Shown here piece by piece: positions 9,907 through 31,297 of a DNA stretch of 64,000 nt. Position 1 is the first letter of the stretch. Each line of letters opens with the position of its first letter. Made by a program: the position numbers and the translations under genes. The stretch is taken from NCBI RefSeq assembly GCF_011059185.1, contig NZ_JAALFE010000020.1, forward strand, positions 1 to 64,000. The letters run 5' to 3'. The stretch comes from Paragemmobacter kunshanensis. GTDB taxonomy: Bacteria > Pseudomonadota > Alphaproteobacteria > Rhodobacterales > Rhodobacteraceae. Under the pieces are notes generated by a model. That model was not told the DNA's origin and did not search any database. It worked only from the letters and a program-made list of their open reading frames with translations.

Positions 9907-11343
9907 TCACTCCCGGCGCGTCACCAGCCGCGTTTCCAGATAGGCCTCCAGCGCCTCGGATCCGCCTTCCGTGCCATAGCCCGACTCCTTCATGCCACCG
10001 AAGGGGATCTCGGGCAGGGCAAGGCCCAGATGGTTGATCGACAGCATGCCCGCCTCCACCTCGGCCGACAGCCGCGTGCTGGTGGCCGTGCTGCGGGTAA
10101 AGGCAAAGGCCGCCAGCGCAAAGGGCAGACGGTTCGCCTCGGCGATCGCCTCGTCCAGCGCGGAAAAGCGGTTGACGATGGCGACCGGCCCGAAAGGTTC
10201 CTCGTTCATGATCCGCGCCGAAACCGGCACATCGGCCAGCACGGTGGGTTCAAAGAACCAGCCCTCGTTGCCGATGCGCCGCCCGCCTGTCAGCAGCCGC
10301 CCGCCCCGCTCCACCGCATCGGCCACCAGCGCCTCCAGCGCGGGGATGCGGCGTTCATTGGCCAGCGGCCCCATCTCTGTCTCGGGGTCAAGCCCGTGGC
10401 CCACCCGCAGCTTGCGCGCAGCGGCGACGAAACGGTCGGCAAAGGCATCGGCCAGCGCCTCCTGCACCAGAAACCGCGTCGGCGACACGCAGACCTGGCC
10501 CGCATTGCGGAACTTGTTCGGGATGATGGTGGCGGCGGCAAGATCCAGATCGGCATCCGCCGCGATGATCACCGGCGCATGCCCGCCCAGCTCCATCGTG
10601 GCCCGCTTCATGTGCAGCCCCGCCAGCGCGGCCAGCTGCTTGCCCACCGGGGTGGATCCGGTAAAGCTGATCTTGCGGATCACCGGATGCGGGATCAGAT
10701 ATTCCGATATCTCGGCCGGAATGCCGAAGACCAGATTGGCCACCCCGGCAGGCAGGCCCGCATCGGCAAAGGCGCGGATCAGTTCGGCAGGGCTTGCCGG
10801 CGTCTCCTCGGGGGCTTTCACGATGATGGAACAGCCCGCCGCCAGCGCGGCCGACAGCTTGCGCACCACCTGGTTGATGGGAAAGTTCCACGGCGTGAAG
10901 GCCGCCACCGGCCCGACCGGCAGCTTCATCGTCATCTGCACGATCTCGGGCGCGCGCGACGGGATCACCTGCCCATAGGCGCGCGGCGCCTCTCCCGCGA
11001 ACCAGTCGATGATATCGGCCCCGGCCAGCGTCTCAAGCCGCGCCTGCGCCAGCGGCTTGCCATTCTCGCGCACCATCAGGCTGGCCACCTCCTCGGCGCG
11101 CGCGCGCAGGATGTCGGCGGCCTTGCGCATCAGTCTGGCCCGGTCATGGGCCGCCGTCCTGCGCCAAAGCTCAAAGCCCCGCGCGGCGGCGGCCAGCGCC
11201 TGATCCAGATCGTCGCGGCTGGCATGGGCCACCGTTCCGATGCGCTCCGCCGTGGCCGGATCGACGACGGGGATCACGCGCCCGTCCGATGCGGGCCGCC
11301 AGACGCCGTCAATGAAAAGCTGGACATCAGGGTAGGTGTTCAT
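9907..11343 (-). CDS. NAD(P)-dependent aldehyde dehydrogenase, succinate-semialdehyde dehydrogenase type
   Basis: 478 aa, the usual ALDH length. Oxidises an aldehyde, probably an omega-semialdehyde, to the acid. Visible motifs: [10 protein letters not shown] near 148 (Asn in substrate binding), [11 protein letters not shown] near 227, MELGGHAP near 250 (catalytic Glu) and [12 protein letters not shown] near 280 (nucleophilic Cys). It is the last gene of a minus-strand run and overlaps the upstream fused dehydrogenase by ATGA, so it should serve the same pathway. GabD-like enzymes accept succinate, glutarate or adipate semialdehydes; sequence alone does not choose. Confidence 0.88.
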
Positions 11344-13280
11344 GGGTTCTGCTTCCTGTCCTTCTGGAACATGGGTCCGCCCCTGGCGCGCGGAAATCCG
11401 TAGCCATGGACCTGCACAAGGTCGATATCGGCAGGGCTGGCGGCGATGCCTTCCGCAAGGATCGCCGCGCCCTCGGCCGCCAGGGCGCCGGTCAGCCGCT
11501 CCACGATGACCTCTGCCGCAACCGGGCGGTCCGCGCCCGCCAGGGCCGCGATGATGCGCGCCGCCTCGGTCGAGTGGCGCGGGCTGCGATCCCCCGGCGC
11601 ATAGTCATACCACCCCGCCCCGGTCTTGATCCCCTTGCGCCCCGCGCGCACCAGCAGATCGCCGGGCGCCTCAGGCACATCCTCGCCCCGCGCCCGCGCG
11701 GCCTCGCGGTTCAGAAAGCTGATATCCAGCCCCGCCATGTCCTGCATCTCGAACGGGCCCATCGCATAGCCAAAGCCGCGCATCGCCGCGTCGATATCCG
11801 CAAAAGGCACGCCCTCGCGCAGCAGGGCCTCGGCCTCGGCCCGGTAGCGGCGCAGGATGCGGTTGCCGATGAAGCCCTCGCAGATGCCCGACCGCACCGG
11901 CACCTTGCCCAGCCGCCGCGCCAGATCGAAGACCGTCGCCAGCACAGGGGCCGAGGTTTCGGGCAAGGGGATGATCTCGACCAGCTTCATGATCTGCGCC
12001 GGGCTGAAGAAATGCATCCCCACCACCCGGTCGCCCGACACGGACCCCGCCACAATCCCGCGCGGGTCGATGTATGAGGTGTTGGTGGCCAGGATCGCAT
12101 CCGCACGGCACAACCCGCCCAGATCGGCAAAGACCGCGCGCTTGACCGCCAGATCCTCGAACACGGCCTCGACCACCAGATCGCAATCCGCCAGCCCCTC
12201 CAGCCCGACACAGCCGCTCAGACCCGCGCGGCGCGCCTCAGCCTCTTCTGACGTGATCAGCCCCCGGCGCTCGGCAGCCTCGAACAGGGCCCGAACCGTG
12301 CCAAGCCCCTTTTCAAGCGCGGTCGCGTCACGTTCCGACATCACGACGCGCAGTCCCGCATTGCGGAAGGCGGCGGCGATGCCGCTGCCCATGGTGCCCC
12401 CGCCGACAACCCCCACCAGGCCGATCTCGCGCGGGGCGACCCCGCGCAGGTCCGCGGGGCGCAGCGCCGCCCTTTCGGCACGGAACAGATAGCGCAGCGC
12501 GGCAGACTCTTCGGAAGCCTTCAGCGCAAGGAAGGTCTCGCGCTCGTGGCGCAGCCCTTCGCGGATCCCCTGCTCCACCCCCTGCCGCACCGCCCGCAAC
12601 GCGGCCAGCGGCGCAGCCGCCCCCTTGGCCGCCTTGCCGATGCGCGCCTCCGCCCGGTCCCAGAATTCCACGCCGGGATCGGCCAAGGGCCGTTGGCTTG
12701 CCGGCGGGACGCAGTCCGTCAGCGCTGCGGCAAAGGCCACCGCGCCCTCGGTCAAGTCACCCTCGATGATGCGGTCCAGAAGCCCCATCCGCGCCGCCCG
12801 CGCACTGTCCAGCATGTCGCGCTCGGCAATCACCGGGACCGCCGCCTCGATCCCCACAAGGCGCGGCAGGCGCTGCGTCCCCCCCGCCCCGGGGATGAAC
12901 CCCAGCGTCACCTCGGGCAGGCCCAGCGTCGCACCCGGCAGGGCCACGCGGTGATGACAGCCCAGCGCAAGTTCCAGACCACCGCCCAGCGCCGGGCCAT
13001 GGATCGCCGCCACCCAGGGCTTCCCTGCCGCCTCGATCCGCCGGATCACCTCCGGCAGGGTCGGTTCCTCGGGCGGACGGTCGAATTCCGCAAGATCGGC
13101 CCCCCCGACAAACAGCTTGCCCGCCCCCCGCAGGACAACCGCGGTGATCGACGGATCCGCCTCCGTCTCTGCGACAAGCCCGACCAGCCGCGCGCGCACC
13201 GCGGTGTTCAAGGCATTCACCGGCGGATTGTCGATCGTCAGCACGGCCACGCTGCCGGATCGTTCAACTGTGACGGTCAT
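11340..13280 (-). CDS. Fused enoyl-CoA hydratase / 3-hydroxyacyl-CoA dehydrogenase (FadB/FadJ-like)
   Basis: 646 aa, somewhat shorter than E. coli FadB or FadJ. Residues about 1-180 are a crotonase domain with both catalytic Glu positions ([11 protein letters not shown] and [13 protein letters not shown]). Residues about 290-470 are the NAD-binding dehydrogenase domain ([13 protein letters not shown]), followed by the C-terminal dimerisation domains ([25 protein letters not shown]). It performs hydration and NAD-linked oxidation of an enoyl-CoA to 3-oxoacyl-CoA. It lies between a CoA-transferase and the aldehyde dehydrogenase gene, and its partner thiolase is probably the one at 30092. PaaH/PaaG-like use on adipyl-type CoA esters is plausible. 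Confidence 0.92.
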
Positions 13281-13312
13281 TTCGCCCCTTCCGCATGAAT
13301 GATGCCTGCAGG

Positions 13313-14563
13313 TCAGGCCGTGGCCCCGGCCCGCCTGGCCGCGACGGCTGACGCGATGTCATGGCAGGCGATGACGCCCTTCGCCACAAGCTCCTCGATC
13401 CGCGCGCCGTCCAGCCCCAGCACATCGCGCAGGATGGCGCGCGTGTCCTCGCCCAGCAGGGGCGGCGCCTTCGGCACATGTCCCTCCTGCGCCGCCAGCC
13501 CCTGCGCCGGCCGCACCAGCGAGATCGGGCCAAGCTCGGGATGCTGCAGGGTCTGGATCACCTCACGCTCCACCACGGATTTTGCCTGCAGCGCCTCGGA
13601 GACCGATTTCACCGGCCCCGCCGGCACATCCGCGGCAAGGCAGGCGTCAAGCCAATGCGCAGAACTGCGCGTGCCGACGATCTCCTGGATCGTGTCCAGC
13701 AGGTCCTGTCGGTGCAGCGCGCGCTGATGCGAGGTGACAAAGCGCGGATCCTCGGCCAGATCGGGCCGCAGGATCACCTGCCTGCAGAAATCGGCGAACA
13801 TCCGGTCATTGCCCACGGCCAGCGCGAAATGCCCGTCCGAGGCGTCGAACAGCTGATAGGGCACCACGGTCGGATGGGCATTGCCATAGCGCGTGGCCTC
13901 CACCCCGGCATTCAGATAGGCCGTCCCGACATTGACCAGCAGGTTCAGCGCGGAATCGAGCAGCGCCACATCTATGTACTGCCCCTGCCCGCTGTCGCGC
14001 CGCTGATGCAGGGCTGCCAAAATGGACTGGGTCGCCACCATCCCCGCCACGACATCGGTAAAGGCCACGCCCAGCCGGTTGGGCGGCCCGTCGGCGGCCC
14101 CCGTGATGGACATCAGCCCGCTTTCCGCCTGCATGATGAAATCATAGCCGGGCCGCCGCGCCTCCGGCCCCGTCTGGCCATAGCCCGAGATCGAACAATA
14201 GACGATCCCGGGGTTGATCTCGCGGATCTGCCGATAGCCAAGTCCCAGCCGGTCCACCGTCCCGGCCCGGAAATTCTCCACCACCACATCCGCCCGCGCC
14301 GCAAGATCCAGCACGAGGGCAAGCCCCTCGGGCGATTTCAGATCCAGCGCGATGCTGTGCTTGCCGCGATTGGCGCAGAGGAAATAGGTGCTGACGCCCT
14401 TGTAATTCGGCACCGACCAGGCGCGCGTGTCGTCACCGCCCTTGATGTTCTCGATCTTCCAGACTTCGGCCCCCATGTCGGCCAGGCTCATGGTCGTCCA
14501 GGGTCCGGCAAGGACCCGCGTCAGGTCCAGCACCTTGATGCCTTCCAGCGGCAGGGTCTGCAT
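13313..14563 (-). CDS. Class III CoA-transferase (CaiB/BaiF, formyl-CoA transferase family)
   Basis: 416 aa. Moves CoA between a donor thioester and a free carboxylate through an enzyme-bound anhydride. The N-terminus [20 protein letters not shown], the LDLKSPEG block near 73 and [17 protein letters not shown] near 140-160, which should carry the catalytic Asp, are standard. Members include succinyl-CoA:glutarate/dicarboxylate transferases, which would suit this cluster, but specificity cannot be read. It lies downstream of the ABC importer genes and 33 bp before the fused beta-oxidation enzyme. Confidence 0.9.
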
Positions 14564-14589
14564 CGTCTTGGTCCTCCCTCGTTTCGCTC

Positions 14590-15600
14590 TCAGCCCGTCG
14601 TCGCCAGGCCCGTTTCCCGGGCACTTGGAAAATGGCAGGCGACGGCATGCCCTTCGGCCGTTTCGGCAAGCGGCGGTTCCCTTTCGGCGCAGATCCCCCT
14701 GGCAATCGGGCAGCGCGTGCGGAAATGGCAGCCCGATGGCGGGTTCATCGGGCTTGGCACATCCCCCGTCAGCACGATGCGCCTGCGCGCCCTCTCGCGC
14801 GGGGGATCGGCCAGCGGCACCGCAGACATCAGCGCCTGCGTATAGGGATGCTGCGGCGAGGCGTAGAGGTGCCGCTTGTCGGCGATCTCCACGATCTTGC
14901 CCAGATACATCACCGCCACGCGATGCGAGATATGCTGCACCACCGACAGGTCATGCGCGATGAACAGGAAGGCCGTCGAAAACTCGCGCTGGATATCCTT
15001 CAGCAGGTTCAGAACCCCCGCCTGCACCGACACATCCAGCGCCGATACCGGCTCGTCCAGCACCAGAAGATCGGGTTGCAGCGCCAGCGCGCGCGCGATG
15101 ACGACCCGCTGGCGCTGGCCGCCCGAAAGGGCATGGGGATAGCGGCTGCCATGTTCCGGGTTCAGCCGCACCAGATCCAGCATCTCGGCCACGCGCCGCC
15201 TGCGCGCATCGGCGTCAAGCTCGCTGATCCGCAGCGGCTCGGCGATGTTCTCGGCCACCGTCATGCGGGGATGCAACGAGGAATAGGGATCCTGGAAGAC
15301 AAGCTGGATCTTCCGGCGCAGCATCCGCATCTCTTCCTTCGGCAGCGCGTTGATGTCCTGCCCGCGAAACAGCGTCTGCCCCTCCGACGGTTCGATCAGC
15401 CGCAGGATGCACCGGCCCAGCGTCGATTTCCCGCAGCCCGACTCTCCGACAAGGCCCAGCGTCTCGCCCAGGCCCAGATCGAAGGACACGCCCGCCACCG
15501 CATTCACATGGCCGACATCCCGCTCGATCAGCAGCCCCCCCTTGACGGCAAAGCGCTTGCCCAGATTGCGGACCGAAAGGATCGGGTCAGGCCGGGTCAT
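14590..15600 (-). CDS. Peptide-type ABC transporter ATP-binding subunit (DppF/OppF-like)
   Basis: 336 aa. Walker [12 protein letters not shown] near 57-67, signature LSGGQRQRV near 168, Walker [13 protein letters not shown] near 185 and a C-terminal oligopeptide/dipeptide transporter domain with the CxxRCP-type Cys motif ([11 protein letters not shown]). It powers uptake by the permeases encoded just upstream. The ATG at 15600 overlaps the stop of the preceding ATPase gene (ATGA). Specificity is set by the separately encoded binding protein at 26203. Confidence 0.93.
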
Positions 15601-16583
15601 GCGATGGTCTCCGATGGCGCAAAGGCGAAATGGCAGGCGGCGGCATGCCCGCCCTCTTCCCGCATCGACGGCGCCTCGCGGCGACAGATTTCGCCTGCCG
15701 CGATGCAACGGGGATGAAAGGCGCATCCTGCCGGAAGCTGGCCCAGCGCGGGCGGCGTGCCGTCGATGGAAAACAGCCGGTCATTCTGCACCGTCATGTC
15801 GGGGATCGAGGCGATCAGCCCGCGCGTATAGGGATGCCCGGGCCGCGCGAACAGATCGTCCACCCCCGCCTGCTCCACCACCTGCCCCGCATAGACCACC
15901 GCCACCCGGTCGGCATGTCCGGCCAGCACGCCCAGATCATGCGTGATCAGGATCAGCCCCAGCTTCAGCCGCGCCTGCAACTCGGCCAGCACCTCCATGA
16001 TCTGCGCCTGCACCGTCACATCCAGCGCCGTCGTCGGCTCGTCGGCGATCAGCAGATCGGGGTCGTTCGCCACCGCCATGGCGATCATCACCCGCTGCCG
16101 CATCCCGCCGGAGAATTCGTGCGGATACTGCGCCAGCCGCCGGTCGGGCTGCGGTATGGCCACCAGCGCCAGCAGGTCGCGCGCCCGGTCCGCCGCCGCG
16201 TGGCGCGACATGTCGGGATTGTGCAGGCGCACCGCCTCGATGATCTGCTCGCCCACCGTCATCACCGGATTGAGCGAGGACAGCGGATCCTGAAAGATCA
16301 TCGCGATCCGCGATCCGCGCAGCTTGCGCAATTCGCGCCGCGGCAGCCCGACCAGCTCGCGCCCGTCGAACCGCACCGATCCCGTCACCCGCGCCCCCTC
16401 GGGCTGCAGTCCCAGCGCCGCCAGCATCCCCACCGACTTGCCCGATCCGGATTCCCCCACGATCCCCAGCACCTCACCCGGATCCACATGCAGGGAAATG
16501 CCCCGCACCGCCTCGGCATAGGTTCCGTTGCGCCCGAAGGCCACGCGCAGGTCGCGCACCTCGAATAGCGGAGAAGCGCTCAT
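15597..16583 (-). CDS. Peptide-type ABC transporter ATP-binding subunit (DppD/OppD-like)
   Basis: 328 aa. Walker [12 protein letters not shown] near 44, signature [12 protein letters not shown] near 154, Walker [13 protein letters not shown] near 175, H-loop ITHDLG near 208, and the Cys-containing C-terminal domain (CAFHPRC). It pairs with the next ATPase as the two motor subunits. ATGA overlaps on both sides place it tightly inside the operon. Confidence 0.93.
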
Positions 16584-17416
16584 CTGGACCTCGGGTCAAA
16601 GTAATCGTGCAGGCCGTCACCGATGAAGTTGAAGCCCAGGACGATGGTCAGGATGGCCAGCCCGGGGCCAAGGGCCACCCACCAGGAATAGAACTGCGAC
16701 GCCCCGTCCGAGATCATGGATCCCCATTCCGGCGTCGGCGGCGTGGCCCCCAGCCCGATGAACGACAACGAGGCCGCCAGCAGGATCACCTGCCCCAGAT
16801 CCATCGTCGCGCTGATCAGAACGGGCGTCCAGCACAGCGGCAGCACATGTTTCCCCAGCACCCGGCCCTGCGTCGCACCCGAAGCGATGGCCGCCTCGAC
16901 ATGCTCGCGCTCGCGCACCTCCAGAACCTGCGCCCGCATCAGCCGGGCATAGACAGGCCACCACACGATCACCATCGCGATGGCCGCATTCTCCAGCCCC
17001 GGCCCCAGCGAGGCCGCCACCGCCATCGCCAGCAGCATCGGCGGAAAGGACAGCGTCACATCCACCATCCGCATGATGACGGTATCCACGAACCCGCCCA
17101 CGAACCCCGCCACCGCCCCGAGAGAGGCCCCGATCGCCACGGCAAAGGCCACCACCGTCACCGCGATGGGGATGGAATGGCGCGCGCCATGCAGCGTCCG
17201 GCTCAGCACGTCGCGCCCCAGCGCATCGGTGCCCAGCAGATGATCCCAGCTTGGCGGCTGCAACCGTCGCCCCACCATGTCCAGCGGCGCATGGGCCGAC
17301 ATCCACGGCGCGGCCACCGTCGCCACCAGCCAGAACAGGATCAGCACGGCCCCCACGATCAGGGGCGGGGTCAGCCAGCGCGGACGTGCGGAACGGGAAA
17401 GGAAAAGGACGCTCAT
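16580..17416 (-). CDS. Peptide-type ABC transporter permease (DppC/OppC-like)
   Basis: 278 aa inner-membrane protein. The N-terminus has one long helix (about 18-40), then HLLGTDALGRDVLSRTLHGAR near 59-79, the hallmark of the DppC/OppC group, and the EAA loop EHVEAAIASGAT near 170-181 that contacts the ATPases. It forms a heterodimer with the DppB-like permease; its start lies 4 bp past that gene's stop. Confidence 0.93.
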   Translation of the reverse strand: MSVLFLSRSARPRWLTPPLIVGAVLILFWLVATVAAPWMSAHAPLDMVGRRLQPPSWDHLLGTDALGRDVLSRTLHGARHSIPIAVTVVAFAVAIGASLGAVAGFVGGFVDTVIMRMVDVTLSFPPMLLAMAVAASLGPGLENAAIAMVIVWWPVYARLMRAQVLEVREREHVEAAIASGATQGRVLGKHVLPLCWTPVLISATMDLGQVILLAASLSFIGLGATPPTPEWGSMISDGASQFYSWWVALGPGLAILTIVLGFNFIGDGLHDYFDPRSR

Positions 17417-17419
17417 GGA

Positions 17420-18433: not shown

Positions 18434-18491
18434 GGCCTTGTCCTTCCCGGGATGTCTTGCGGATGGAGCGGTCCGGCATTCCTCGATAGTA

Positions 18492-18539
18492 TTGACAACC
18501 GGAGAGGGCGCAGTCAACATAATTGAAATTAAGTTTCAA
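18492..18539 (+). promoter_or_regulatory. IclR promoter and candidate operator
   Basis: A perfect -35 TTGACA (18492-18497) with 17 bp to CAACAT is followed by the inverted repeat TTGAAA-ttaag-TTTCAA (18523-18539). The repeat lies between the divergent importer operon and the IclR gene, the expected place for autoregulation plus control of the importer. A related 17-mer is at 23913-23929. The operator assignment is inferred from symmetry and location. Confidence 0.6.
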
Positions 18540-18596
18540 ATATTGGCGACGCCTCCCGTGACGGAACCGGATAAACAGTAGCAACGGGTAACGAAG

Positions 18597-22671: not shown

Positions 22672-22674
22672 GGT

Positions 22675-23817
22675 TCACCTCTGGGCGCACATTTCGCGCG
22701 CGATGATGATCTGCTGGATCTGCGATGTCCCCTCATACAGCCGGAACAGCCGCACGTCGCGATAGAAGTGTTCCACCGGATAGTCCTGCATGTAGCCCGC
22801 ACCGCCATGAACCTGCAGCGCGCGGTCAGCCACGCGCCCCGCCATTTCCGAACAGAACAGCTTGCAACTGGCCGCCTGCTGCACGATCCGCTCGCCCGCA
22901 TCGAACCGCCGCGCCGCATCCGTCACCATGCACAGCCCCGCATAGGTTTCCGTGGCGCAATCGGCCAGCATGGCCTGCACCAGCTGATGCTCCGCAATGG
23001 GCTTGCCGAACTGCACCCGGCTTCTTGCAAAGCCCACCGCCTCGTCGCACAGCCGCTGCGCCTGCCCGACACAGACCGCCGCGATATGCAGCCGCCCCCG
23101 GTTCAGCACCTTCATCGCGGTCTTGAACCCCTGCCCCTCCACCCCGCCGATCACGGCATCGGCAGGCACGCGGCACTCCCGCAGGATCACGTCGCAGGTC
23201 TTCGTCCCGCGCTGCCCCATCTTTCGGTCCGGCGGCCCAAGGCTCAGCCCCGGACTGTCGGCAGCCACCAGAAAGGCCGTCACGCCCCCCGGCCCGGCCT
23301 CGCCCGTCCGCGCCATCAGGGTAAAGACATCCGCCACCGGCGCATTGGTGATATAGCGTTTCGTGCCGTTCAGGATGTAGTGATCCCCCTCGCGCCGCGC
23401 CGTCGTCCTGACGGATCCCGCATCCGATCCCACATCCGGCTCGGTCAGGGCAAAGGACCCGATCACCTCGCCCGAGGCCATGCGCGGCAACCAATGCGCC
23501 TTCTGCGCCTCGGTCCCGTCCACGATGATGCCCTGCGACCCGATCCCGTTATTCGTCCCGATCACCGACCGGAAGGCCGCCGATGTATAGCCCAGTTCCA
23601 GGGCCACCATCACCTCTTCCTCCATGGTCAGGCCAAGGCCGCCATAGGCTTCGGGAATCGACAGGCCGAACAGGCCCAGCGCGCGCATCTCGTCGATGAT
23701 GGCGGGCGGAATGGCGTTGGTTTCCTCAACCAGCGCTTCGGCGGGAACCAGCCTCTCGCGGACGAACCGCCGGACCGTTTCCACAAGCCCGCCAAGGATT
23801 TCGGCGTCCCGGATCAT
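22675..23817 (-). CDS. Acyl-CoA dehydrogenase
   Basis: 380 aa, normal length. FAD enzyme oxidising an acyl-CoA to the 2-enoyl-CoA and passing electrons to ETF. Motifs: FALTEPDVGSDAGSVRTTA near 120-138 (FAD contact), YITNAPVADVFTLMART, and the catalytic base Glu in LYEGTSQIQQII near 365. The ATG at 23817 is the first gene of a minus-strand trio with kinase and aldolase, divergent from the E1 gene. The frame stays open far upstream on this strand but only as antisense of other genes. The acyl chain accepted is not readable; short or dicarboxylic chains would fit. Confidence 0.93.
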   Translation of the reverse strand: MIRDAEILGGLVETVRRFVRERLVPAEALVEETNAIPPAIIDEMRALGLFGLSIPEAYGGLGLTMEEEVMVALELGYTSAAFRSVIGTNNGIGSQGIIVDGTEAQKAHWLPRMASGEVIGSFALTEPDVGSDAGSVRTTARREGDHYILNGTKRYITNAPVADVFTLMARTGEAGPGGVTAFLVAADSPGLSLGPPDRKMGQRGTKTCDVILRECRVPADAVIGGVEGQGFKTAMKVLNRGRLHIAAVCVGQAQRLCDEAVGFARSRVQFGKPIAEHQLVQAMLADCATETYAGLCMVTDAARRFDAGERIVQQAASCKLFCSEMAGRVADRALQVHGGAGYMQDYPVEHFYRDVRLFRLYEGTSQIQQIIIAREMCAQR

Positions 23818-23912
23818 CGCGGCCCCTGCCCTTTCCCACCGGGCCGACCCCGGCACCAAGATTTCTGTTGCACGGAAAGGCTGGCACGGCTTAGTGTTCG
23901 TTTCAAGAGAAA

Positions 23913-23929
23913 ACGGAATTAATTTCCAC
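23913..23929. promoter_or_regulatory. Second candidate IclR operator
   Basis: The near-palindrome GGAA-ttaat-TTCC lies in the divergent gap between the acyl-CoA dehydrogenase and E1 genes. It shares 11 of 17 positions, including the central AATTAA-TT core, with the repeat at 18523-18539. A looser GTTTC...GAAAAC pair precedes it at about 23900-23914. Shared control by the IclR protein is an inference. Confidence 0.5.
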
Positions 23930-23985
23930 AAAAGCAGAACCCGCCCTCCAGCCGCCTGGAAACGCGGATCATCAAAGGACCGGAC

Positions 23986-26160
23986 ATGCCGCAACGGACC
24001 CCTCTCCAGCCCTCGGCCCCATGGTTCCGCCTCGATGTGGACATGGCCGACTGGCAGGCGGAAAAGCCGACGGATCTGCTGCACTGGTATGCCCAGATGC
24101 TGCTGATCCGGCGGTTCGAGGAAAAGTTGCTGGAACTGGAAAAGGCGGGCCTCATCCACGGCCCCGCCCATGCCAGCATCGGGCAAGAGGCGGGCGCCGT
24201 CGGCGCGATCTCGGTCCTCGGCCCCGAAGATCGCCTGAACGGCACCCACCGCGCCCATCATCAGGTCCTGCTGAAACTGGTCAGCGCCGTCACCCCCCCG
24301 GAATTCGACATCCTGAACGACGATTTCACCCCCGCCATGGACGAGGCGATCTTCCGCTTCATGGCCGAAATCATGGGCCTCACCCCCGGCTATTGCGGCG
24401 GGCGGGGCGGCTCCATGCACATGCGCAACGCCGCGGCAGGCATCATGGGCACCTCGGCCATCGTGGGCGGCAACCCGCCCCATGCCGTGGGCTATGCGCT
24501 CGCCGACAAAATGCTGGGCCGCGATCACGTCTCGGTCGCCTTCTTCGGCGACGGCGCCGCCCAGAACGGCGCGACATACGAGGCGATGAACATCGCCGCC
24601 GCCCAGCGCACCCCCACGATCTTCTTCATTGAAAACAACCTCTACGGCGTCTCGACCCGCCTGAACGAGATCACCCGCGAAACCCGCATCACCTCGCGCG
24701 GGGCGATGTTCGCCATTCCGGCGATAGAGGTGGACGGCATGGATGTCGTCGCCGTCCACCGCGCCATGGCCGAGGCCCGCCGCATCATCGCAACCGAAGG
24801 CGGCCCGGTCGTGGTCGAGGCGCTGCTCTACCGCCATTTCCACCAGTCCGGCAGCCGCAAGGGCAGCGATTTCGGTTACCGCGCCCCGGCCGAGGAAGAG
24901 GAATGGCTGGCCCGCGATCCGGTCACCACCGCCGCCGCCCGCCTGCGCGAGATGGGCATCGCGGGCACCGAAGACCTCGCCCGCATCGACGCTTGCGTCA
25001 CCGGCCGCGTCGCCGCCGCCGCCGCGCAACTGACCGAAACCATCCCCGGCGGCAATGCCCTGCGCATCCCCGAACGGCTCTGGCCCGATCCGGCCAGCCG
25101 CGACGACGGCATCCTCGGCGATCTGTCGGAACTGGCCGATGCCCGCGTGATGGATCACGACGCCCTCGCCACCACGCAGACCGAGCGGGTGAAATTCGTC
25201 ACCGCCGCCTCTGAAACGCTGGCCGCCGCCATGGAACGCGACCCCCGCATCATCGTGATGGGCGAAGATGTCCACCAGATGCGCGGCGGTGTCTCGGGCT
25301 TCACCAAGGGCGCGCTGGAACGCTGGCCGGGCCGCGTGCTGCCCATGCCCATCGCCGAGAACGGCTTTACCGGCGTCGCCCTCGGCGCCGCGCTCAACGG
25401 CCTGCGCCCGGTGGTGGAAATCATGTTCGGCGATTTCTGCTTCACCGCCGCCGACCAGATCGCCCATGGCCTGGGCAAGGTCCGCCACATGTTCGGCTCG
25501 GGCTTTCCCGTGCCGCTCGTCATGCGGGTGCGCGTCTCGCCCCATACCGGCTACGGCTCCCAGCATTCCGCCGATCCCTCGGCCCTCTTCGCCCTCTTTC
25601 CCGGCTGGCGCATCGTCAGCCCCGCCACGGCGCATGATTACATCGGCCTGATGAACGCCGCGCTCCGCTGCGACGATCCGGTTCTGGTCATCGAACATAC
25701 CGAACTTTACCAGCGCGAATTCGACGTCCCCGCGGGCGACCGCGATTTCATCATCCCCTTCGGACGCGCCCATGTGGTGCGCCCCGGCACCGCCTGCACC
25801 GTGCTTGCCACCTCCGTCATGGTCGAGAACGCCGTGAAGGCCGCCTCTGATACCGGCATCGACGCCGAGGTGATCGACCTGCGCAACCTCGATCACCACG
25901 GCATCGACTGGGAAACGATCGGCGCCTCCATCGACCGCACGGGCCGCGTCATCATCGCCGAACAGACGGCCCGCAGCATGTCGATGGGCGCCCTCTGGGC
26001 CGATGGCATCCAGAGCCGCTTCTTCGACAGCCTCGACCACGAAATCCTGCGCGTGACGGGCGGCCTTGCCGCGCCCACCGTCTCGGCAGTCCTCAATCGC
26101 GCTGCCCTCGCTTCGGTGGCGGATATCCGCGATGCGCTCCTGCGCATCACCGGCAACTAG
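23986..26160 (+). CDS. 2-oxoacid/acetoin dehydrogenase E1, alpha and beta subunits fused
   Basis: 724 aa. Residues about 25-345 are an E1-alpha-like ThDP domain with RRFEEKLLELEKAG, GGRGGSMHM and the ThDP motif GDGAAQNGATYEA...ENN near 188. Residues about 385-724 are E1-beta-like (VMGEDVHQMRGG, catalytic-site IAENGFTGVALGAAL near 455, DLRNLDHHGIDWE). E1 normally consists of two chains; here they are one. With the E2 at 19441 it should decarboxylate a 2-oxoacid or cleave a diketone/acetoin and form an acyl-CoA. First gene of the plus-strand arm. Confidence 0.9.
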   Translation: MPQRTPLQPSAPWFRLDVDMADWQAEKPTDLLHWYAQMLLIRRFEEKLLELEKAGLIHGPAHASIGQEAGAVGAISVLGPEDRLNGTHRAHHQVLLKLVSAVTPPEFDILNDDFTPAMDEAIFRFMAEIMGLTPGYCGGRGGSMHMRNAAAGIMGTSAIVGGNPPHAVGYALADKMLGRDHVSVAFFGDGAAQNGATYEAMNIAAAQRTPTIFFIENNLYGVSTRLNEITRETRITSRGAMFAIPAIEVDGMDVVAVHRAMAEARRIIATEGGPVVVEALLYRHFHQSGSRKGSDFGYRAPAEEEEWLARDPVTTAAARLREMGIAGTEDLARIDACVTGRVAAAAAQLTETIPGGNALRIPERLWPDPASRDDGILGDLSELADARVMDHDALATTQTERVKFVTAASETLAAAMERDPRIIVMGEDVHQMRGGVSGFTKGALERWPGRVLPMPIAENGFTGVALGAALNGLRPVVEIMFGDFCFTAADQIAHGLGKVRHMFGSGFPVPLVMRVRVSPHTGYGSQHSADPSALFALFPGWRIVSPATAHDYIGLMNAALRCDDPVLVIEHTELYQREFDVPAGDRDFIIPFGRAHVVRPGTACTVLATSVMVENAVKAASDTGIDAEVIDLRNLDHHGIDWETIGASIDRTGRVIIAEQTARSMSMGALWADGIQSRFFDSLDHEILRVTGGLAAPTVSAVLNRAALASVADIRDALLRITGN

Positions 26161-26165
26161 AAGAC

Positions 26166-26181
26166 GGACCGGTCCCGGTCC
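26166..26181 (+). promoter_or_regulatory. mRNA hairpin upstream of the binding-protein gene
   Basis: A perfect 7-bp inverted repeat (GGACCGG-TC-CCGGTCC) lies in the 42-bp gap after the E1 gene, ahead of a strong AAGGAGGA ribosome-binding site. With the hairpin at 27810-27835 it brackets the binding-protein gene and may stabilise that mRNA segment. Confidence 0.45.
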
Positions 26182-26202
26182 ACCAACAAGGAGGACGGAC
26201 AA

Positions 26203-27801
26203 ATGACACTCAAGGGGTTCAGACCCAAGGCGATGGTTCTGTCGCTTGCGGTCGCGGCGGCGGCCTACGGCCTTTACGTGCCGCAGGCTTCCGCGCAGGA
26301 AAAGGCGCTCGTGATCGCCCGCGACATGGATGTCAACGCGCTCGATCCGCACCGTGCCTGGTGCGACACCTGCCAGATCTACAACACCTCGGTCTATGAA
26401 CAGCTTGTCACGCTGGACAAGGACAACAAGATCCAGCCGCTTCTGGCGACAAGCTGGTCGGCCAATGCGGATCAGACCGAATTCACCTTCACCCTCGATG
26501 CGGCGGCGAAATTCTCCGACGGCTCGCCGGTGGAATCGAAGGATGTCAAATGGTCCTTCGAACGGCTGAAGAACCTCAAGGGCAACGCGGCCTTCCTCGC
26601 CGATCCGATCACCGCCATCGACACGCCCGACGCGCAGACCGTCGTGGTCAAGCTGGCCTCGTCCAATTCCGAATTCCTCAACCAGGCGGCGGCGGGCTTT
26701 CTTGGCGTGATCAACAGCGATGTCGCCATGGCCAATGGCGCCGTGGCCGATGAAACCGCCGCCGAGGCAGACACCTCGGAAACCTGGTTCCTGTCGAACT
26801 CGGTCGGCAGCGGGCCTTTCGTTCTGACCACCTATGAACCCAATTCCGAACTGCGCCTGACCCGGAACGAGAATTACTGGCGCACCAAGCCTGCCCTGCC
26901 CGAGGTGATCTTCCGCCAGGTCAAGGATGCCGTGGCCCAGGCCCAGATGCTGCAATCGGGCGATGTCGACATCGCCATGCAGATCGACCCGGAAACCGCC
27001 AAGTCGCTGGAAGGCTCGCCCGCCATCGTGGAACGGGTGCCCTCCTACAACTTCGTCTACATCGCCCTGTCGCCGGGGGCCAAGGCCACCCCCATCGACA
27101 TGACCCCCGAAGTGCGCGAGGCGATCTCCATCGCCATCGACCGCACCTCGCTGATCGACTTCACGCTGGGCGGGGCCGGCCGGCCGCTGGCCGCGCCCAT
27201 CCCGCTGGGCTTCCCCGGCGGCGACGGGCACGCGGTGCCGGAATACAATCCCGACAAGGCCAAGGAGATGCTCGCAGCCGCCGGCCATCCCGACGGCTTC
27301 ACCCTGCAGACGATCTATCCCGACATGAATGTCTACGGGGTGGACTTCAACCTGATGATGCAGAAGATCCAGCAGGATCTCTCCAAGGTCGGCGTCACGC
27401 TGGAACTGCAGCCCGTCCCCTTCGCCAACTGGCGCGAGGCCGCGAATGGCGATCACATCCCGCTGACCGCCGTCTTCTTCGCCCCCGATTTCTACGGCAC
27501 CTCGCAATATGTCGATGTCTTCGGGATGCAGGAAGGCTCGGTCTGGGCCAATCGCGCGGGCGGCGACACCGTGCCGGGCATCATCAACCCCCGCCCCGGT
27601 GAGTTGAAGACCGCAGCCCTCGCCGCCTCCACCGTGGAAGAGGCCAACGCCCTCTGGAACGAGGCCGCGCAAGAGATGATCAACAACAAGATCATCATTC
27701 CGATGGTCAGCCCCGATCTGATCCTCGCCTATGGGCCGAATGTGAAGGGCGTGCGCTACAGCGCCTGCTGCAACCTGCCGCTTGCGGAAATCACCAACTG
27801 A
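26203..27801 (+). CDS. ABC transporter periplasmic binding protein, family 5 (peptide/nickel type)
   Basis: 532 aa with a signal peptide (positive start, hydrophobic core, cleavage near AQASA at about 31). Mature protein shows the SBP_bac_5 signature (YNTSVYEQLVTLDKDNKIQPLLATSWSAN near 60-90; FSDGSPVESKDVKWSFERL near 110). It should deliver substrate to the permeases and ATPases at 14590-18433, the only complete peptide-type importer core in the window and one lacking its own binding protein. Despite the family name such proteins also bind opines, amino compounds and sugars. It has a strong RBS and hairpins on both sides. Confidence 0.9.
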   Translation: MTLKGFRPKAMVLSLAVAAAAYGLYVPQASAQEKALVIARDMDVNALDPHRAWCDTCQIYNTSVYEQLVTLDKDNKIQPLLATSWSANADQTEFTFTLDAAAKFSDGSPVESKDVKWSFERLKNLKGNAAFLADPITAIDTPDAQTVVVKLASSNSEFLNQAAAGFLGVINSDVAMANGAVADETAAEADTSETWFLSNSVGSGPFVLTTYEPNSELRLTRNENYWRTKPALPEVIFRQVKDAVAQAQMLQSGDVDIAMQIDPETAKSLEGSPAIVERVPSYNFVYIALSPGAKATPIDMTPEVREAISIAIDRTSLIDFTLGGAGRPLAAPIPLGFPGGDGHAVPEYNPDKAKEMLAAAGHPDGFTLQTIYPDMNVYGVDFNLMMQKIQQDLSKVGVTLELQPVPFANWREAANGDHIPLTAVFFAPDFYGTSQYVDVFGMQEGSVWANRAGGDTVPGIINPRPGELKTAALAASTVEEANALWNEAAQEMINNKIIIPMVSPDLILAYGPNVKGVRYSACCNLPLAEITN

Positions 27802-27809
27802 TGCCTTCG

Positions 27810-27835
27810 GCGGGGGCACGCTGGCGTGCCCCCGC
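27810..27835 (+). terminator. Strong intra-operon hairpin after the binding-protein gene
   Basis: A perfect 12-bp stem (GCGGGGGCACGC / GCGTGCCCCCGC) with a 2-nt loop starts 9 bp after the stop. There is no T-run, so it is more likely a partial terminator or 3' stability element that raises binding-protein mRNA relative to the downstream enzymes. Confidence 0.6.
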
Positions 27836-27856
27836 CCCCAACCGGAAAGCCCGATC

Positions 27857-29101
27857 ATGACAGCGACCCTTGCAAATTCCCGCGACATCGCCCTTCAGGA
27901 CAGGGCGCGCCGGGTCATCCCCAACGGCATGTGGGGCCATATGGCCACCCGCTCCATCGCGCCGGGCTATCCGCAATTCTTCTCCCGCGCCGATGGCTGC
28001 CGCGTCTGGGATGCCGACGGGAACGAATACATAGATTTCATGTGCGCCTGGGGCCCGAATGTCCTGGGCTACCACCACGAGGCCGTCGATGCCGCCGCCC
28101 TCGCCCAGTTGCGGGTGGTGGATTCCGGCAATGGCCCGACCGAGACGCTGGTCGAACTGGCCGAGGAACTGACCGCCACCCTCGATCATGCCGACTGGTG
28201 CCTGTTCCAGAAGAACGGCACCGATGCCACCACCGCCTGCATCACCATCGCCCGCGCCGGAACCGGCCGCCGCAAGATCATCCATGCCCGCGGCGCCTAT
28301 CACGGCGCGGTGCCCTGGTGTTCGCCCTCTGTCGTGGGCGTCACCGCCGAAGACCGCGCCCATCTGATCCCCTTCGACTGGGGCGATGCCGCCAGCCTCG
28401 ATGCCGCCGTCGCCCAGGCGGGCGACGATCTGGCCGCCATCATCCTGACCGCCTTCCGCCATGACGTGGCCCGCGATCAAGAGCTTCCGACAACCGCCTT
28501 CCTGCAAGCCGCCCGCGCCCATTGCGACAGGACCGGCGCGATGCTGATCTGCGATGACGTGCGGGCGGGCTTCCGGCTCGATCTGCGCGGCAGCTGGGCG
28601 CGCCATGGCGTGAAACCCGACCTCGCCGCCTATTCCAAGGCCATCGCCAATGGCTGGCCGCTGGCCGCCATCGCAGGCGCCGACCGCGCCCGCGCCGGGG
28701 CCGAAAGCATCTTCACCACCGGCTCCTTCTGGTATGGCGCTGCCGCCATGGCAGCGGGCCTCGCCACCATCCGCATCCTGCGCGACACCGACGCCCTCGC
28801 CCATACCGAGGCGATGGGCAACCGCCTGAGGAAGGGCCTCGACGAGGCGGCCTCCCGCCACGGCTACCGCCTGCGCCAGACCGGCCCCGTGCAGATGCCC
28901 ATGGTTCTTGTCGATGGCGACAGGGATCTGGCCATCGGCAACGCGCTCTGCCTCGCGGCCCTGCGCCACGGCGTCTACCTGCATCCAAGGCACAACATGT
29001 TCCTCTGCGCGGCGCATGGCCCGGCGGATATCGACCGCGCCGTCGAAGCCGTCGACCGCGCCTTCGCCGACATCGCCGCCGCGGGCCTCCGGCCCGCCTG
29101 A
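27857..29101 (+). CDS. Class III aminotransferase (glutamate-1-semialdehyde aminomutase-like)
   Basis: 414 aa PLP enzyme. N-terminal IPNGMWGHMATRSIAPGYPQFF resembles the GSA-aminomutase-like branch; FQKNGTDATTACI near 118 binds the PLP phosphate, ICDDVRAGF near 237 supplies the Asp to the pyridine N, and the Schiff-base Lys is in AAYSKAIANGWPLA near 262. True HemL is unlikely in a catabolic operon with importer genes. It probably removes a terminal or alpha amino group from the imported compound. ATG 27857 is chosen because the upstream frame crosses the hairpin. Confidence 0.87.
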   Translation: MTATLANSRDIALQDRARRVIPNGMWGHMATRSIAPGYPQFFSRADGCRVWDADGNEYIDFMCAWGPNVLGYHHEAVDAAALAQLRVVDSGNGPTETLVELAEELTATLDHADWCLFQKNGTDATTACITIARAGTGRRKIIHARGAYHGAVPWCSPSVVGVTAEDRAHLIPFDWGDAASLDAAVAQAGDDLAAIILTAFRHDVARDQELPTTAFLQAARAHCDRTGAMLICDDVRAGFRLDLRGSWARHGVKPDLAAYSKAIANGWPLAAIAGADRARAGAESIFTTGSFWYGAAAMAAGLATIRILRDTDALAHTEAMGNRLRKGLDEAASRHGYRLRQTGPVQMPMVLVDGDRDLAIGNALCLAALRHGVYLHPRHNMFLCAAHGPADIDRAVEAVDRAFADIAAAGLRPA

Positions 29102-29115
29102 CCACAGGAAATCCC

Positions 29116-30078: not shown

Positions 30079-30091
30079 CCGGGGGCACGGC

Positions 30092-31297
30092 ATGGCGACC
30101 CGGGCGGCCTATCTCTGCGACTATATCCGCACCCCCATCGGCCGCTTCGGCGGCGCGCTTGCTGCCGTCCGCCCCGACGACCTCGGCGCGATCCCGCTCC
30201 GCGCCCTCATGGCCCGCAACCCGGGCCTGGACTGGGACGCCGTCGATGACGTCATCCTCGGCTGCGCCAATCAGGCGGGCGAGGACAACCGCAACGTCGC
30301 CCGCATGTCCGCCCTGCTGGCAGGGCTTCCCGTCGCCGTCACCGGCACCACGATCAACCGCCTCTGCGGGTCCGGCATGGACGCGATCCTCACCGCCGCC
30401 CGCGCCATCGCGGCGGGCGAGGCCGATCTGATGATCGCAGGCGGCGTCGAATCCATGTCCCGCGCCCCCTTCGTCATCCCCAAGGCCGACAGCGCCTTCT
30501 CCCGCAACGCCGAAATATACGACACCACCATCGGCTGGCGCTTCATCAACCCCGCCATGGACAAGGCCTACGGCACCGACTCCATGCCCCAGACCGGCCA
30601 GAACGTCGCCGATGACTACGGCATCAGCCGCGACGCACAGGATGCCATGGCGCTCGCCTCTCAATCCAAGGCCGCCGCCGCCCAGTCCAATGGCCGCCTT
30701 GCCCGCGAAATCACCCCCGTCACGATCCCGCAGCGCAGGGGCGACCCCCTCACCATCGACCGCGACGAACACCCCCGCACCACCACGATGGAGGCGCTGG
30801 CCAAACTCAAACCCCTCTTCCCCGACGGCTCGGTCACCGCAGGCAACGCCTCGGGCGTGAACGACGGCGCGGCGGCCCTCCTCATCGCCTCCGAAACGGC
30901 GATAAAGCAGCACGGCCTGACCCCCATAGCCCGCATCCTCGGCGGGGCCACCGCCGGCGTGCCGCCCCGCATCATGGGCATCGGCCCCGCCCCCGCCAGC
31001 CAGAAACTCATGGCCCGCCTCAACCTCACCCCATCCGATTTCGACGTGATCGAGTTGAACGAGGCCTTCGCCGCCCAGGGCATCGCCACGCTCCGCCAAT
31101 TGGGCATCAAGGACGATGACCCCCGCGTGAACCCCAATGGCGGGGCCATCGCGCTGGGCCACCCCCTCGGCATGTCCGGCGCGCGCCTCACCGGCACGGC
31201 GGCCCTCGAACTGGCCCTCACCGGCCGCCGCCGCGCGCTTGCCACCATGTGCATCGGCGTGGGCCAGGGCATCGCCATCGCGCTGGAACGCCCCTGA
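30092..31297 (+). CDS. pcaF: 3-oxoadipyl-CoA thiolase
   Basis: 401 aa thiolase. It starts YLCDYIRTPIGRFGGALAAV and contains GCANQAGEDNRNVARM, the nucleophilic Cys in NRLCGSGMDA near 90, GGVESMSRAPFV, NEAFAAQG near 322, ALGHPLGMSGAR near 353 and the second Cys in TMCIGVGQG near 387. This pattern matches beta-ketoadipyl-CoA thiolases (PcaF/PaaJ) better than general acetyl-CoA acetyltransferases. Products would be succinyl-CoA and acetyl-CoA. It is the last gene of the plus-strand arm and provides the only thiolase for the fused enzyme at 11340. Confidence 0.88.
   Translation: MATRAAYLCDYIRTPIGRFGGALAAVRPDDLGAIPLRALMARNPGLDWDAVDDVILGCANQAGEDNRNVARMSALLAGLPVAVTGTTINRLCGSGMDAILTAARAIAAGEADLMIAGGVESMSRAPFVIPKADSAFSRNAEIYDTTIGWRFINPAMDKAYGTDSMPQTGQNVADDYGISRDAQDAMALASQSKAAAAQSNGRLAREITPVTIPQRRGDPLTIDRDEHPRTTTMEALAKLKPLFPDGSVTAGNASGVNDGAAALLIASETAIKQHGLTPIARILGGATAGVPPRIMGIGPAPASQKLMARLNLTPSDFDVIELNEAFAAQGIATLRQLGIKDDDPRVNPNGGAIALGHPLGMSGARLTGTAALELALTGRRRALATMCIGVGQGIAIALERP

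What the first reader, a model, noticed from the sequence alone, without database searches (positions are those of the whole stretch)
9907..31297. IclR-centred catabolic island with an undescribed gene combination
One locus combines a split peptide-type ABC importer, a fused E1, an AcoC-like E2, two unlike aminotransferases, a semialdehyde dehydrogenase, a class III CoA-transferase, an acyl-CoA dehydrogenase, a fused hydratase/dehydrogenase and a PcaF-type thiolase. Gene content is seen directly. If the thiolase makes succinyl-CoA and acetyl-CoA, the acyl-CoA upstream is adipyl-CoA. Two models follow: (a) omega-amino acid to semialdehyde to adipate to adipyl-CoA (aminotransferase, dehydrogenase, CoA-transferase); (b) 2-amino dicarboxylate such as a diaminopimelate-derived compound to 2-oxopimelate, then E1/E2 to adipyl-CoA. 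Both are inference.
Basis: partly seen in the sequence, partly recalled or inferred. Interest (0 to 1): 0.8.

Follow-up and report, generated by a model that had tools for sequence, protein, structure and literature searches.

The report
Acquired amine-degrading gene island
A horizontally acquired, jointly regulated set of seventeen genes that appears to import a chiral amine, strip off its nitrogen with two unlike transaminases and break down the carbon skeleton, which gives a natural setting to an enzyme type prized in industry.

Summary
Genus-mates carry the empty site: tRNA-Met beside LysR-GCDH. Gene content and order recur across several alphaproteobacterial orders. One palindrome, YGRAATTWWDTTYCA, lies in both divergent promoter regions (24 of 24 and 19 of 19 loci) and occurs only twice in the 4.46-Mb genome, both times here: probably one IclR regulon. 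The class IV transaminase is an (R)-amine-type enzyme: PDB 6XU3, named in print as a Shinella (R)-ATA, is 100% identical to the copy in a Shinella island. The class III one is nearest to the fumonisin enzyme FumI. Best reading: imported vicinal amino alcohol -> hydroxy-ketone -> E1/AcoC (acetoin-dehydrogenase-like) cleavage to acyl-CoA plus aldehyde -> acid -> CoA-transfer -> beta-oxidation. Shown: unit, operator, enzyme families. Inferred: regulation, cleavage chemistry. Unknown: substrate. Nine paper searches brought no description of the cluster.

The parts
9778..9851 (+). tRNA-Met (CAT); left boundary of the island
   Evidence: empty site in same-genus genomes
9907..11343 (-). aldehyde dehydrogenase, succinate-semialdehyde-dehydrogenase-like
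   Evidence: SSADH subfamily 467.6 bits, cut-off 646
11340..13280 (-). fused enoyl-CoA hydratase / 3-hydroxyacyl-CoA dehydrogenase
   Evidence: motifs
13313..14563 (-). class III (CaiB/BaiF) CoA-transferase, nearest succinate-glutarate CoA-transferase
   Evidence: 356.8 bits, cut-off 750
14590..15600 (-). peptide-type ABC importer ATPase (DppF-like)
   Evidence: annotated homologues
15597..16583 (-). peptide-type ABC importer ATPase (DppD-like)
   Evidence: annotated homologues
16580..17416 (-). peptide-type ABC importer permease (DppC-like)
17420..18433 (-). peptide-type ABC importer permease (DppB-like)
18524..18538 (.). operator-like palindrome 1, TGAAATTAAGTTTCA, between dppB and iclR
   Evidence: 24 of 24 regions
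18597..19415 (+). IclR-family regulator
   Evidence: PcaR/PcaU subfamily 125 bits, cut-off 285
19441..20736 (+). AcoC-type E2: lipoyl, E3-binding and alpha/beta-hydrolase parts (start inferred)
   Evidence: acetoin dehydrogenase E2 model 360 bits, cut-off 307; domains seen in the orthologue L106
20771..21418 (-). class II aldolase, FucA-like
   Evidence: 203 bits; OtnC-type model 120
21412..22671 (-). four-carbon acid sugar kinase-like protein (OtnK-like)
   Evidence: 250.7 bits, cut-off 350
22675..23814 (-). acyl-CoA dehydrogenase (start inferred from relatives)
   Evidence: Glu motif
23914..23928 (.). operator-like palindrome 2, CGGAATTAATTTCCA, between acyl-CoA dehydrogenase and E1
   Evidence: 19 of 19 regions
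23986..26160 (+). fused E1 alpha/beta, thiamine-diphosphate-dependent
26203..27801 (+). periplasmic substrate-binding protein of the importer
27857..29101 (+). AT3: class III aminotransferase, FumI-like
   Evidence: 6hbs 432 bits; next 156 bits
29116..30078 (+). AT4: (R)-amine-transaminase-type class IV aminotransferase
   Evidence: 6xu3 572 bits; 6xu3 identical to the Shinella island copy L039
30092..31297 (+). 3-oxoadipyl-CoA thiolase (PcaF type)
   Evidence: 677 bits, cut-off 597

Best explanation
The island is one acquired, IclR-regulated pathway that imports a small chiral amine and mineralises it. Shown: unit of inheritance, shared palindrome, enzyme families. Inferred, in order: the peptide-type ABC importer brings in a compound carrying a secondary-carbon amine next to a hydroxyl (a vicinal amino alcohol). 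AT3 and AT4, two amine transaminases of unrelated fold and probably opposite stereopreference, pass the amine to pyruvate, giving L- and D-alanine and a hydroxy-ketone (acyloin). The fused E1 with the AcoC-type E2 cleaves the acyloin as acetoin dehydrogenase does, giving an acyl-CoA (acetyl-CoA if the amine sits on CH3-CH(NH2)-) and an aldehyde. ALDH oxidises the aldehyde to an acid, the class III CoA-transferase activates it, and acyl-CoA dehydrogenase, hydratase/dehydrogenase and PcaF-type thiolase beta-oxidise it, with a dicarboxylate such as adipate the likeliest acid. The kinase/class II aldolase pair would take polyhydroxylated ketones to dihydroxyacetone phosphate plus aldehyde. The IclR protein is probably a repressor relieved by the substrate or a product.
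For: Unit: 0 of 12 same-genus genomes have AT4 at E <= 1e-60; empty site in 8 of 9 stretches, the ninth ends at a contig end. Regulon: palindrome in 24 of 24 and 19 of 19 regions (pattern drawn from these sites), 2 sites in 4.46 Mb of the own genome, both in the island; 40 of 43 sites in 18 genomes, own included, lie in the island, none in two genus-mates lacking it. Amine chemistry: AT4 groups with (R)-amine transaminases; 6XU3 is identical to the island copy of L039 and is named a Shinella (R)-ATA in PMC10671532 (passages); AT3 is nearest FumI, which turns a 2-amino-3-ol into a 2-keto-3-ol (PMC2933618, passages). The palindrome precedes a flavin amine oxidase and an EutQ-like gene in L041. 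Direction: DadA beside AT4 homologues in L061, L063, L068. Cleavage: AcoC passes the acetoin-dehydrogenase E2 cut-off; relatives of the fused E1 sit with SSADH-like ALDH in 3 of 7 stretches looked at; AcoC-type E2 also occurs in sugar/polyol-type clusters. An (R)-ATA with acetohydroxyacid synthase makes norpseudoephedrine (PMC7228992, passage), the reverse of the proposed step as I recall the chemistry.
Against: No substrate is known, no activity or DNA binding was tested, no structure was predicted. The fused E1 is its own clade, 34-36% identical to both pyruvate dehydrogenase and AcoC-linked E1s, and the E1s with solved structures that it hits are 2-oxoacid enzymes, so acyloin and 2-oxoacid chemistry are not separated. 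ALDH is absent from the stretches read in six of 22 genomes with E1 and CaiB (G399, G403, G406-G409; seen in 14, two could not be judged), although acyloin cleavage makes an aldehyde; four of seven stretches of E1 relatives show no such ALDH. G404 lacks ACAD and ECH/HAD, G405 lacks ECH/HAD and has its ACAD only in a second cluster. AT3 is not beside AT4 in L044 (about 23 kb off) or Rhizobium SSA_523 (a 57% copy over 1 Mb off). By NCBIfam the best model for AT3 is glutamate-1-semialdehyde aminomutase, far below cut-off (217.6 vs 398). The thiolase lies within 25 kb of AT4 in only 5 of 25 genomes. Island AT4s carry Met where the fungal enzymes carry Glu. The DadA-bearing loci are different clusters from the island.
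Confidence: 0.45

Rival explanations
1. Amino-polyol version: the substrate is a 2-amino-polyol or similar; transamination gives a ketose-like compound, the kinase phosphorylates it, the FucA-like aldolase yields dihydroxyacetone phosphate plus an aldehyde, and E1/AcoC cleaves an alternative ketose (glycolyl- or acetyl-CoA).
For: AT3 relatives sit with a 3-oxo-tetronate-type kinase and class II aldolase without E1 (L086), with a class II aldolase and another kinase (L087) or with a transketolase pair (L085); AcoC-type E2 occurs in sugar/polyol-type clusters; a wild-type (R)-type transaminase aminates D-fructose, 28% conversion (PMC10904899, passages).
Against: Does not need acyl-CoA dehydrogenase, CoA-transferase, hydratase/dehydrogenase or PcaF thiolase; Ruegeria lacks kinase and aldolase in the stretches read but keeps the rest of the core; two other AT3 relatives have neither kinase/aldolase nor transketolase nearby.
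Confidence: 0.2
2. One reading: a 2-amino dicarboxylate is transaminated to a 2-oxoacid and E1/AcoC decarboxylates it oxidatively to the next lower dicarboxyl-CoA, then beta-oxidation.
For: E1 families with solved structures are 2-oxoacid dehydrogenases; peptide-type importer; PcaF-type thiolase; ALDH not seen in six genomes.
Against: Both aminotransferases match secondary-amine enzymes best; E2 is of acetoin type; kinase/aldolase and ALDH unexplained.
Confidence: 0.15
3. Cyclic version: a cyclic vicinal amino alcohol or diamine gives a cyclic acyloin or dione that E1/AcoC opens to an omega-oxo-acyl-CoA; ALDH gives adipyl-CoA, which is beta-oxidised to succinyl-CoA and acetyl-CoA.
For: Accounts for PcaF (3-oxoadipyl-CoA) and SSADH-like ALDH together; shikimate-dehydrogenase-like genes accompany some E1 relatives and island variants.
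Against: Leaves CoA-transferase, kinase and aldolase unexplained; I could think of no common natural substrate of this kind.
Confidence: 0.1
4. One reading: omega-amino acid to semialdehyde to adipate to adipyl-CoA; E1/AcoC works in a separate arm.
For: SSADH-like ALDH, SugCT-like CoA-transferase, ACAD, ECH/HAD and PcaF give a complete adipate route on paper.
Against: Neither aminotransferase is of omega-amino-acid type by best match; E1 is among the most conserved parts.
Confidence: 0.05

Closest known systems
(R)-selective amine transaminases (fold type IV), e.g. PDB 6XU3 from Shinella
   Same: AT4: 572 bits over 318 residues to 6XU3, PLP Lys motif and loop Arg; 6XU3 is the island enzyme of Shinella sp. 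SUS2
   Different: Met instead of Glu two residues after the aromatic residue in the island branch; here with an operator-marked pathway context
FumI, aminopentol aminotransferase of Sphingopyxis sp. MTA144
   Same: AT3: nearest solved structure by far, 432 bits over 399 residues
   Different: No fumonisin-type carboxylesterase among the seventeen island genes; activity untested
Acetoin dehydrogenase complex (AcoABC + E3)
   Same: E2 passes the curated cut-off of the acetoin dehydrogenase E2 model
   Different: E1 alpha and beta fused, own clade; no E3 gene in the island
PcaF 3-oxoadipyl-CoA thiolase of the beta-ketoadipate pathway
   Same: Passes the curated cut-off
   Different: Here in the amine island with AT4, not with pca genes
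3-oxo-tetronate kinase / 3-oxo-tetronate-4-phosphate decarboxylase pair (OtnK/OtnC)
   Same: Adjacent kinase and class II aldolase that match those models
   Different: Both below the curated cut-offs; aldolase nearer FucA

Membership tests
(R)-selective amine transaminase | highest similarity to characterised (R)-ATAs rather than to branched-chain or D-amino-acid transaminases | tested here: met
   the top 14 distinct PDB sequences (572-393 bits) are mostly named amine or (R)-transaminase; a second group (275-253 bits) mixes (R)-ATA and branched-chain names; further branched-chain names reach 173 bits at most, D-amino-acid aminotransferase 103
(R)-selective amine transaminase | PLP lysine and loop arginine (motifs recalled) | tested here: met
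(R)-selective amine transaminase | Glu in the Phe/Tyr-Val-Glu active-site motif (recalled) | tested here: not met
   Met in island enzymes, including 6XU3 itself, which is nevertheless named an (R)-ATA in print
(R)-selective amine transaminase | turnover of (R)-amines with pyruvate | not testable with these tools
   only via 6XU3, named a Shinella (R)-ATA in PMC10671532
FumI aminopentol aminotransferase | closest similarity to FumI among solved structures | tested here: met
FumI aminopentol aminotransferase | deamination of hydrolysed fumonisin or similar 2-amino-3-ols | not testable with these tools
   no assay
Glutamate-1-semialdehyde 2,1-aminomutase (AT3) | score above curated cut-off | tested here: not met
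   217.6 vs 398
Acetoin dehydrogenase complex | AcoC E2 above curated cut-off | tested here: met
   island copies L103 and L106
Acetoin dehydrogenase complex | separate AcoA and AcoB E1 subunits (recalled) | tested here: not met
   one 724-residue fused chain
Acetoin dehydrogenase complex | E1 of acetoin rather than 2-oxoacid type | tested here: inconclusive
   own clade; no reference AcoA/AcoB of proven function was in the tree
PcaF 3-oxoadipyl-CoA thiolase | score above curated cut-off | tested here: met
   677 vs 597 and 719 vs 605
OtnK/OtnC tetronate pathway | scores above curated cut-offs | tested here: not met
   kinase 250.7 vs 350, aldolase 120 vs 250
Succinate-semialdehyde dehydrogenase | score above curated cut-off | tested here: not met
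   467.6 vs 646
Succinyl-CoA:glutarate CoA-transferase | score above curated cut-off | tested here: not met
   356.8 vs 750
PcaR/PcaU/PobR regulators | score above curated cut-off | tested here: not met
   125 vs 285

The most novel reading that the evidence does not exclude
A dedicated bacterial pathway for chiral amino alcohols in which a fold-I (FumI-like) and a fold-IV (R) amine transaminase work as a stereo-complementary pair, so that both configurations (or two amines of one molecule) are removed, and a new acetoin-dehydrogenase-like complex with fused E1 cleaves the resulting acyloin. The AT3-AT4 pair persists where the other island enzymes apart from the importer are not seen (L054, L056, L059, L071), so it would be a transferable module and the physiological role of at least one branch of (R)-amine transaminases.
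Probability: 0.35. Interest if true: 0.75.

Novelty: new variant of a known kind. Interest (0 to 1): 0.6.

Why it matters
(R)-selective amine transaminases are prized biocatalysts, yet I found no statement of their natural role in the listings and passages I saw; one was first enriched on an amphetamine derivative as nitrogen source (PMC7228992, passage). An (R)-ATA with a solved structure turns out to be part of a conserved, operator-marked catabolic gene set with a partner transaminase, importer, cleavage complex and beta-oxidation genes. That makes the natural substrate directly testable (ligand screen of one binding protein, or growth and induction tests), and marks a clade of fused E1 enzymes with AcoC-type partners as candidate acyloin-cleaving complexes.

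Tried and rejected
Diaminopimelate, biotin-precursor, calystegine, sphingoid, aminoglycoside and norephedrine substrates were considered from memory; none explains all genes and none was tested (one paper search on calystegine gave nothing useful). GCDH/LysR as pathway members: rejected, they are core genes beside the empty site. Substrate from the binding protein: weak, best solved relative AgaA at 124 bits. E1 tree: island E1s are a supported subclade (100/99) but the split E1s are on long branches, so no substrate call. tRNA-end direct repeat: no exact copy of 12-30 bases in the window; a gapped 12-of-14 match near 31303 in an alignment to an empty site is suggestive only. Papers: nine searches; seen only as listings, plus passages of PMC2933618, PMC10671532, PMC10904899 and PMC7228992; nothing there describes this cluster. 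First gene caller did badly on low-GC loci and was replaced; some calls in L028, L029 and L040 still look spurious. Gene names purN, purM and TetR are by eye from sequence; no family search was made for them.

Full report
WHAT IS THERE. The window is the first 64 kb of contig C31 of a 4.46-Mb genome. From 9907 to 31297 it carries seventeen genes in four gene runs that leave two divergent intergenic regions. Leftward from 18433: dppB-C-D-F (peptide-type importer), CaiB CoA-transferase, fused hydratase/dehydrogenase, ALDH. Rightward from 18597: iclR, acoC. Leftward from 23814: acyl-CoA dehydrogenase, kinase, class II aldolase. Rightward from 23986: fused E1, binding protein, AT3, AT4, thiolase. 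Motifs recalled from the families were found in the eleven enzymes checked (for E1 the alpha part only).

IT IS ONE ACQUIRED UNIT. None of 12 same-genus genomes has AT4 at E <= 1e-60, while the own copy scores 1e-224. In 390 genomes drawn from the order, own included, 21 have a match at E <= 1e-70, and apart from the own copy none of these exceeds 44% identity; yet named genomes of other genera have copies up to 89%, so the distribution is patchy. I fetched nine same-genus stretches around GCDH. In eight, the genes left of the island (purN, purM by eye, then tRNA-Met) lie on the same stretch as the LysR-GCDH pair with no island between; the ninth ends at a contig end. In four of the eight (L144, L145, L147, L150) tRNA-Met and LysR are near neighbours; in the other four about 2 to 4 kb of other DNA lies between. 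GC content of the island genes checked (0.656-0.729) is like that of the neighbour purM (0.691).

CONSERVATION. AT4 as anchor found 48 loci in named genomes: Rhodobacterales, Rhizobiales, Rhodospirillaceae, Caulobacteraceae, Hyphomonadaceae, Sphingopyxis and one Burkholderiales bin. With two plasmid loci, and only +-10 kb held for most, protein families were found in 47 (AT4), 38 (AT3), 32 (binding protein), 27 (E1), 23 (kinase), 22 (aldolase), 20 (AcoC) and 18 (ACAD) of 50 loci (tblastn sees AT3 in 39). Ten of the 50 show neither AT3 nor E1 (L040, L046, L055, L057, L058, L064, L065, L068, L070, L073), so AT4-type enzymes also live elsewhere. I took 25 of the 48 genomes, favouring those with island genes, for whole-genome searches: CaiB in 22 of 25, in 21 of the 22 on the same contig within 20 kb of AT4, the other on a different contig; E1 in 22 of 25, always within 4 kb of AT4; AT3 in 25 of 25, within 10 kb in 24 and at about 23 kb in G405. 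The three without E1 and CaiB at those thresholds are the genomes of L054, L056 and L059. Six plasmids carry AT4 at 75% or more and all six carry E1 at 77% or more. Pairwise distances of AT4 correlate with those of AT3, binding protein, E1, kinase, aldolase, AcoC and ACAD at 0.80-0.95 (91-105 pairs from 15 loci), as expected of joint inheritance, though shared species history would do the same.

REGULON. Both divergent intergenic regions contain one palindrome of the form YGRAATTWWDTTYCA. It is in 24 of 24 dppB/iclR regions and 19 of 19 ACAD/E1 regions that could be cut out; sources without the divergent pair in the stretch were dropped before the count, 3 of 27 and 32 of 51. The pattern was drawn from these sites, so that count is by construction; the specificity is not. 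The own genome has 2 sites in 4.46 Mb, both in the island; two genus-mates without the island have none; of 43 distinct sites in 18 genomes, own included, 40 are in the island and 3 elsewhere (G393:C30, G396:C40, G398:C7); the reversed control pattern gave 1 match in 20 genomes. Shuffles of the window never gave a match. In G399 a third site lies about 240 bp upstream of the pcaF-type thiolase gene, some 20 kb from AT4, which ties the thiolase to the set independently. In L041 a site precedes a flavin amine oxidase followed by an EutQ-like gene; in L045 two sites lie between ACAD and a cytochrome P450. No binding was tested. That the regulator is a repressor is an inference: site 1 follows a promoter-like TTGACA...AACATA (seen by eye).

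TRANSAMINASES. AT4 matches (R)-selective amine transaminases (572 bits to 6XU3). 6XU3, which PMC10671532 names as a Shinella (R)-ATA (passages only), is 100% identical over 318 residues to AT4 of L039, Shinella sp. SUS2, inside the same island. I could not read the original description (PMC8048526 not held). AT3 matches FumI at 432 bits, next 156. FumI transfers the 2-amino group of hydrolysed fumonisin to pyruvate, giving a 2-keto-3-hydroxy compound (PMC2933618, passages). In three other AT4 loci (L061, L063, L068) a D-amino acid dehydrogenase lies nearby (659-664 bits, cut-off 383), as expected if AT4 deaminates amines onto pyruvate and the D-alanine is recycled; the own genome has such an enzyme elsewhere.

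CLEAVAGE. AcoC passes the acetoin-dehydrogenase E2 cut-off, as do the copies in L103 and L106. Fused E1s form their own clade with the island E1s as a supported subclade, 34-36% identical to pyruvate dehydrogenase and to split E1s that accompany AcoC; long branches prevent a substrate call. I looked at seven neighbourhoods of the next-nearest fused E1s. Three have an SSADH-like ALDH with E2 and E3, two of them also SDR oxidoreductases, a set that would suit diol oxidation, acyloin cleavage and aldehyde oxidation; four show no such ALDH (the plasmid gene tables are incomplete). AcoC-type E2s occur with glucitol-type PTS genes (in one search also beside a polyamine-type importer) or with aldolase, transaldolase and triose-phosphate isomerase. 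AT3 relatives without AT4 sit with kinase + class II aldolase or a transketolase pair, and in two other cases with neither. I read this as: transamination makes a hydroxy-ketone that is then split by a thiamine enzyme or by kinase + aldolase.

VARIANTS AND LIMITS. Mesorhizobium islands (L047-L053 with L106-L108) put ECH and HAD as separate genes before E1 where the stretch shows them, carry a third class III aminotransferase after AcoC-ACAD (L106, L108), and show no ALDH. Ruegeria (L042/L103) shows no ACAD, ECH/HAD, kinase or aldolase but keeps AcoC, importer, CaiB, ALDH, E1 and both aminotransferases (its AT3 at 44% only). Paracoccus S-4012 shows no ECH/HAD, and AT3 is about 23 kb off in a second cluster. 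ALDH was seen in 14 of the 22 genomes with E1 and CaiB, not in six, and two could not be judged. Four loci keep only a TetR-like regulator, AT3, importer, an EamA-family transporter and AT4, which could be nitrogen scavenging. The PcaF thiolase is within 25 kb of AT4 in 5 of 25 genomes, while 24 of 25 have a match at E <= 1e-120 somewhere.

VERDICT. One co-regulated, mobile amine-catabolic pathway: very likely (about 0.9 for one co-regulated unit). AT4 working as an amine transaminase in the deaminating direction: likely (about 0.75). Acyloin cleavage by E1/AcoC: about 0.5. Substrate: unknown. Ordinary in being a catabolic island; unusual in giving an (R)-amine transaminase an operator-marked pathway and a partner.

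Noticed in passing
L061:6293-7576, L063:12075-13358, L068:1872-3128: D-amino acid dehydrogenase (DadA) genes near AT4 homologues in Hyphomonadaceae, an alphaproteobacterial bin and Sphingopyxis, with TetR-like regulators (by eye), in clusters otherwise unlike the island.
   Followed up: partly
L054, L056, L059, L071: Minimal clusters of a TetR-like regulator, AT3, binding protein, DppBCDF, an EamA-family transporter (Pfam-tested in L054 only) and AT4, with no E1, AcoC or CaiB in the stretch.
   Followed up: partly
L041:2761-4647: The island palindrome precedes a flavin amine oxidase gene followed by an EutQ-like small protein in Rhodospirillaceae bacterium R-7.
   Followed up: partly
L106:851-9347 and L060:4018-9953: NtaA/DmoA-type flavin monooxygenases (tested in L060), flavin reductase genes and, in L106, a transketolase pair accompany AT3/AT4 in Mesorhizobium and Ancylobacter variants; a polyamine-type importer in L060 is by eye.
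   Followed up: no
L103:567-3709: Ruegeria spongiae has a second fused E1 (47%) and a second class IV aminotransferase (39%) directly beside the island.
   Followed up: no
L104:400-9000: Paracoccus sp. S-4012 carries a second cluster with an AT3 copy (57%), its own DppBCDF, a distant binding protein and an ACAD near the island.
   Followed up: no
L113, L114: Plasmid clusters joining glucitol-type PTS genes, a homoserine-dehydrogenase-like gene, split E1 and an AcoC-type E2: a possible polyol route using an acyloin-cleaving complex.
   Followed up: no
window 31298-31316: Right island junction shows a gapped 12-of-14 match to the tRNA-Met 3' end (9838-9851), a possible remnant of integration.
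   Followed up: partly
window 33779-36425: Glutamine-synthetase-like gene followed by a FAD oxidoreductase, right of GCDH; the glutamine-synthetase-like gene is present beside GCDH in four of nine same-genus stretches and not seen in the other five.
   Followed up: no
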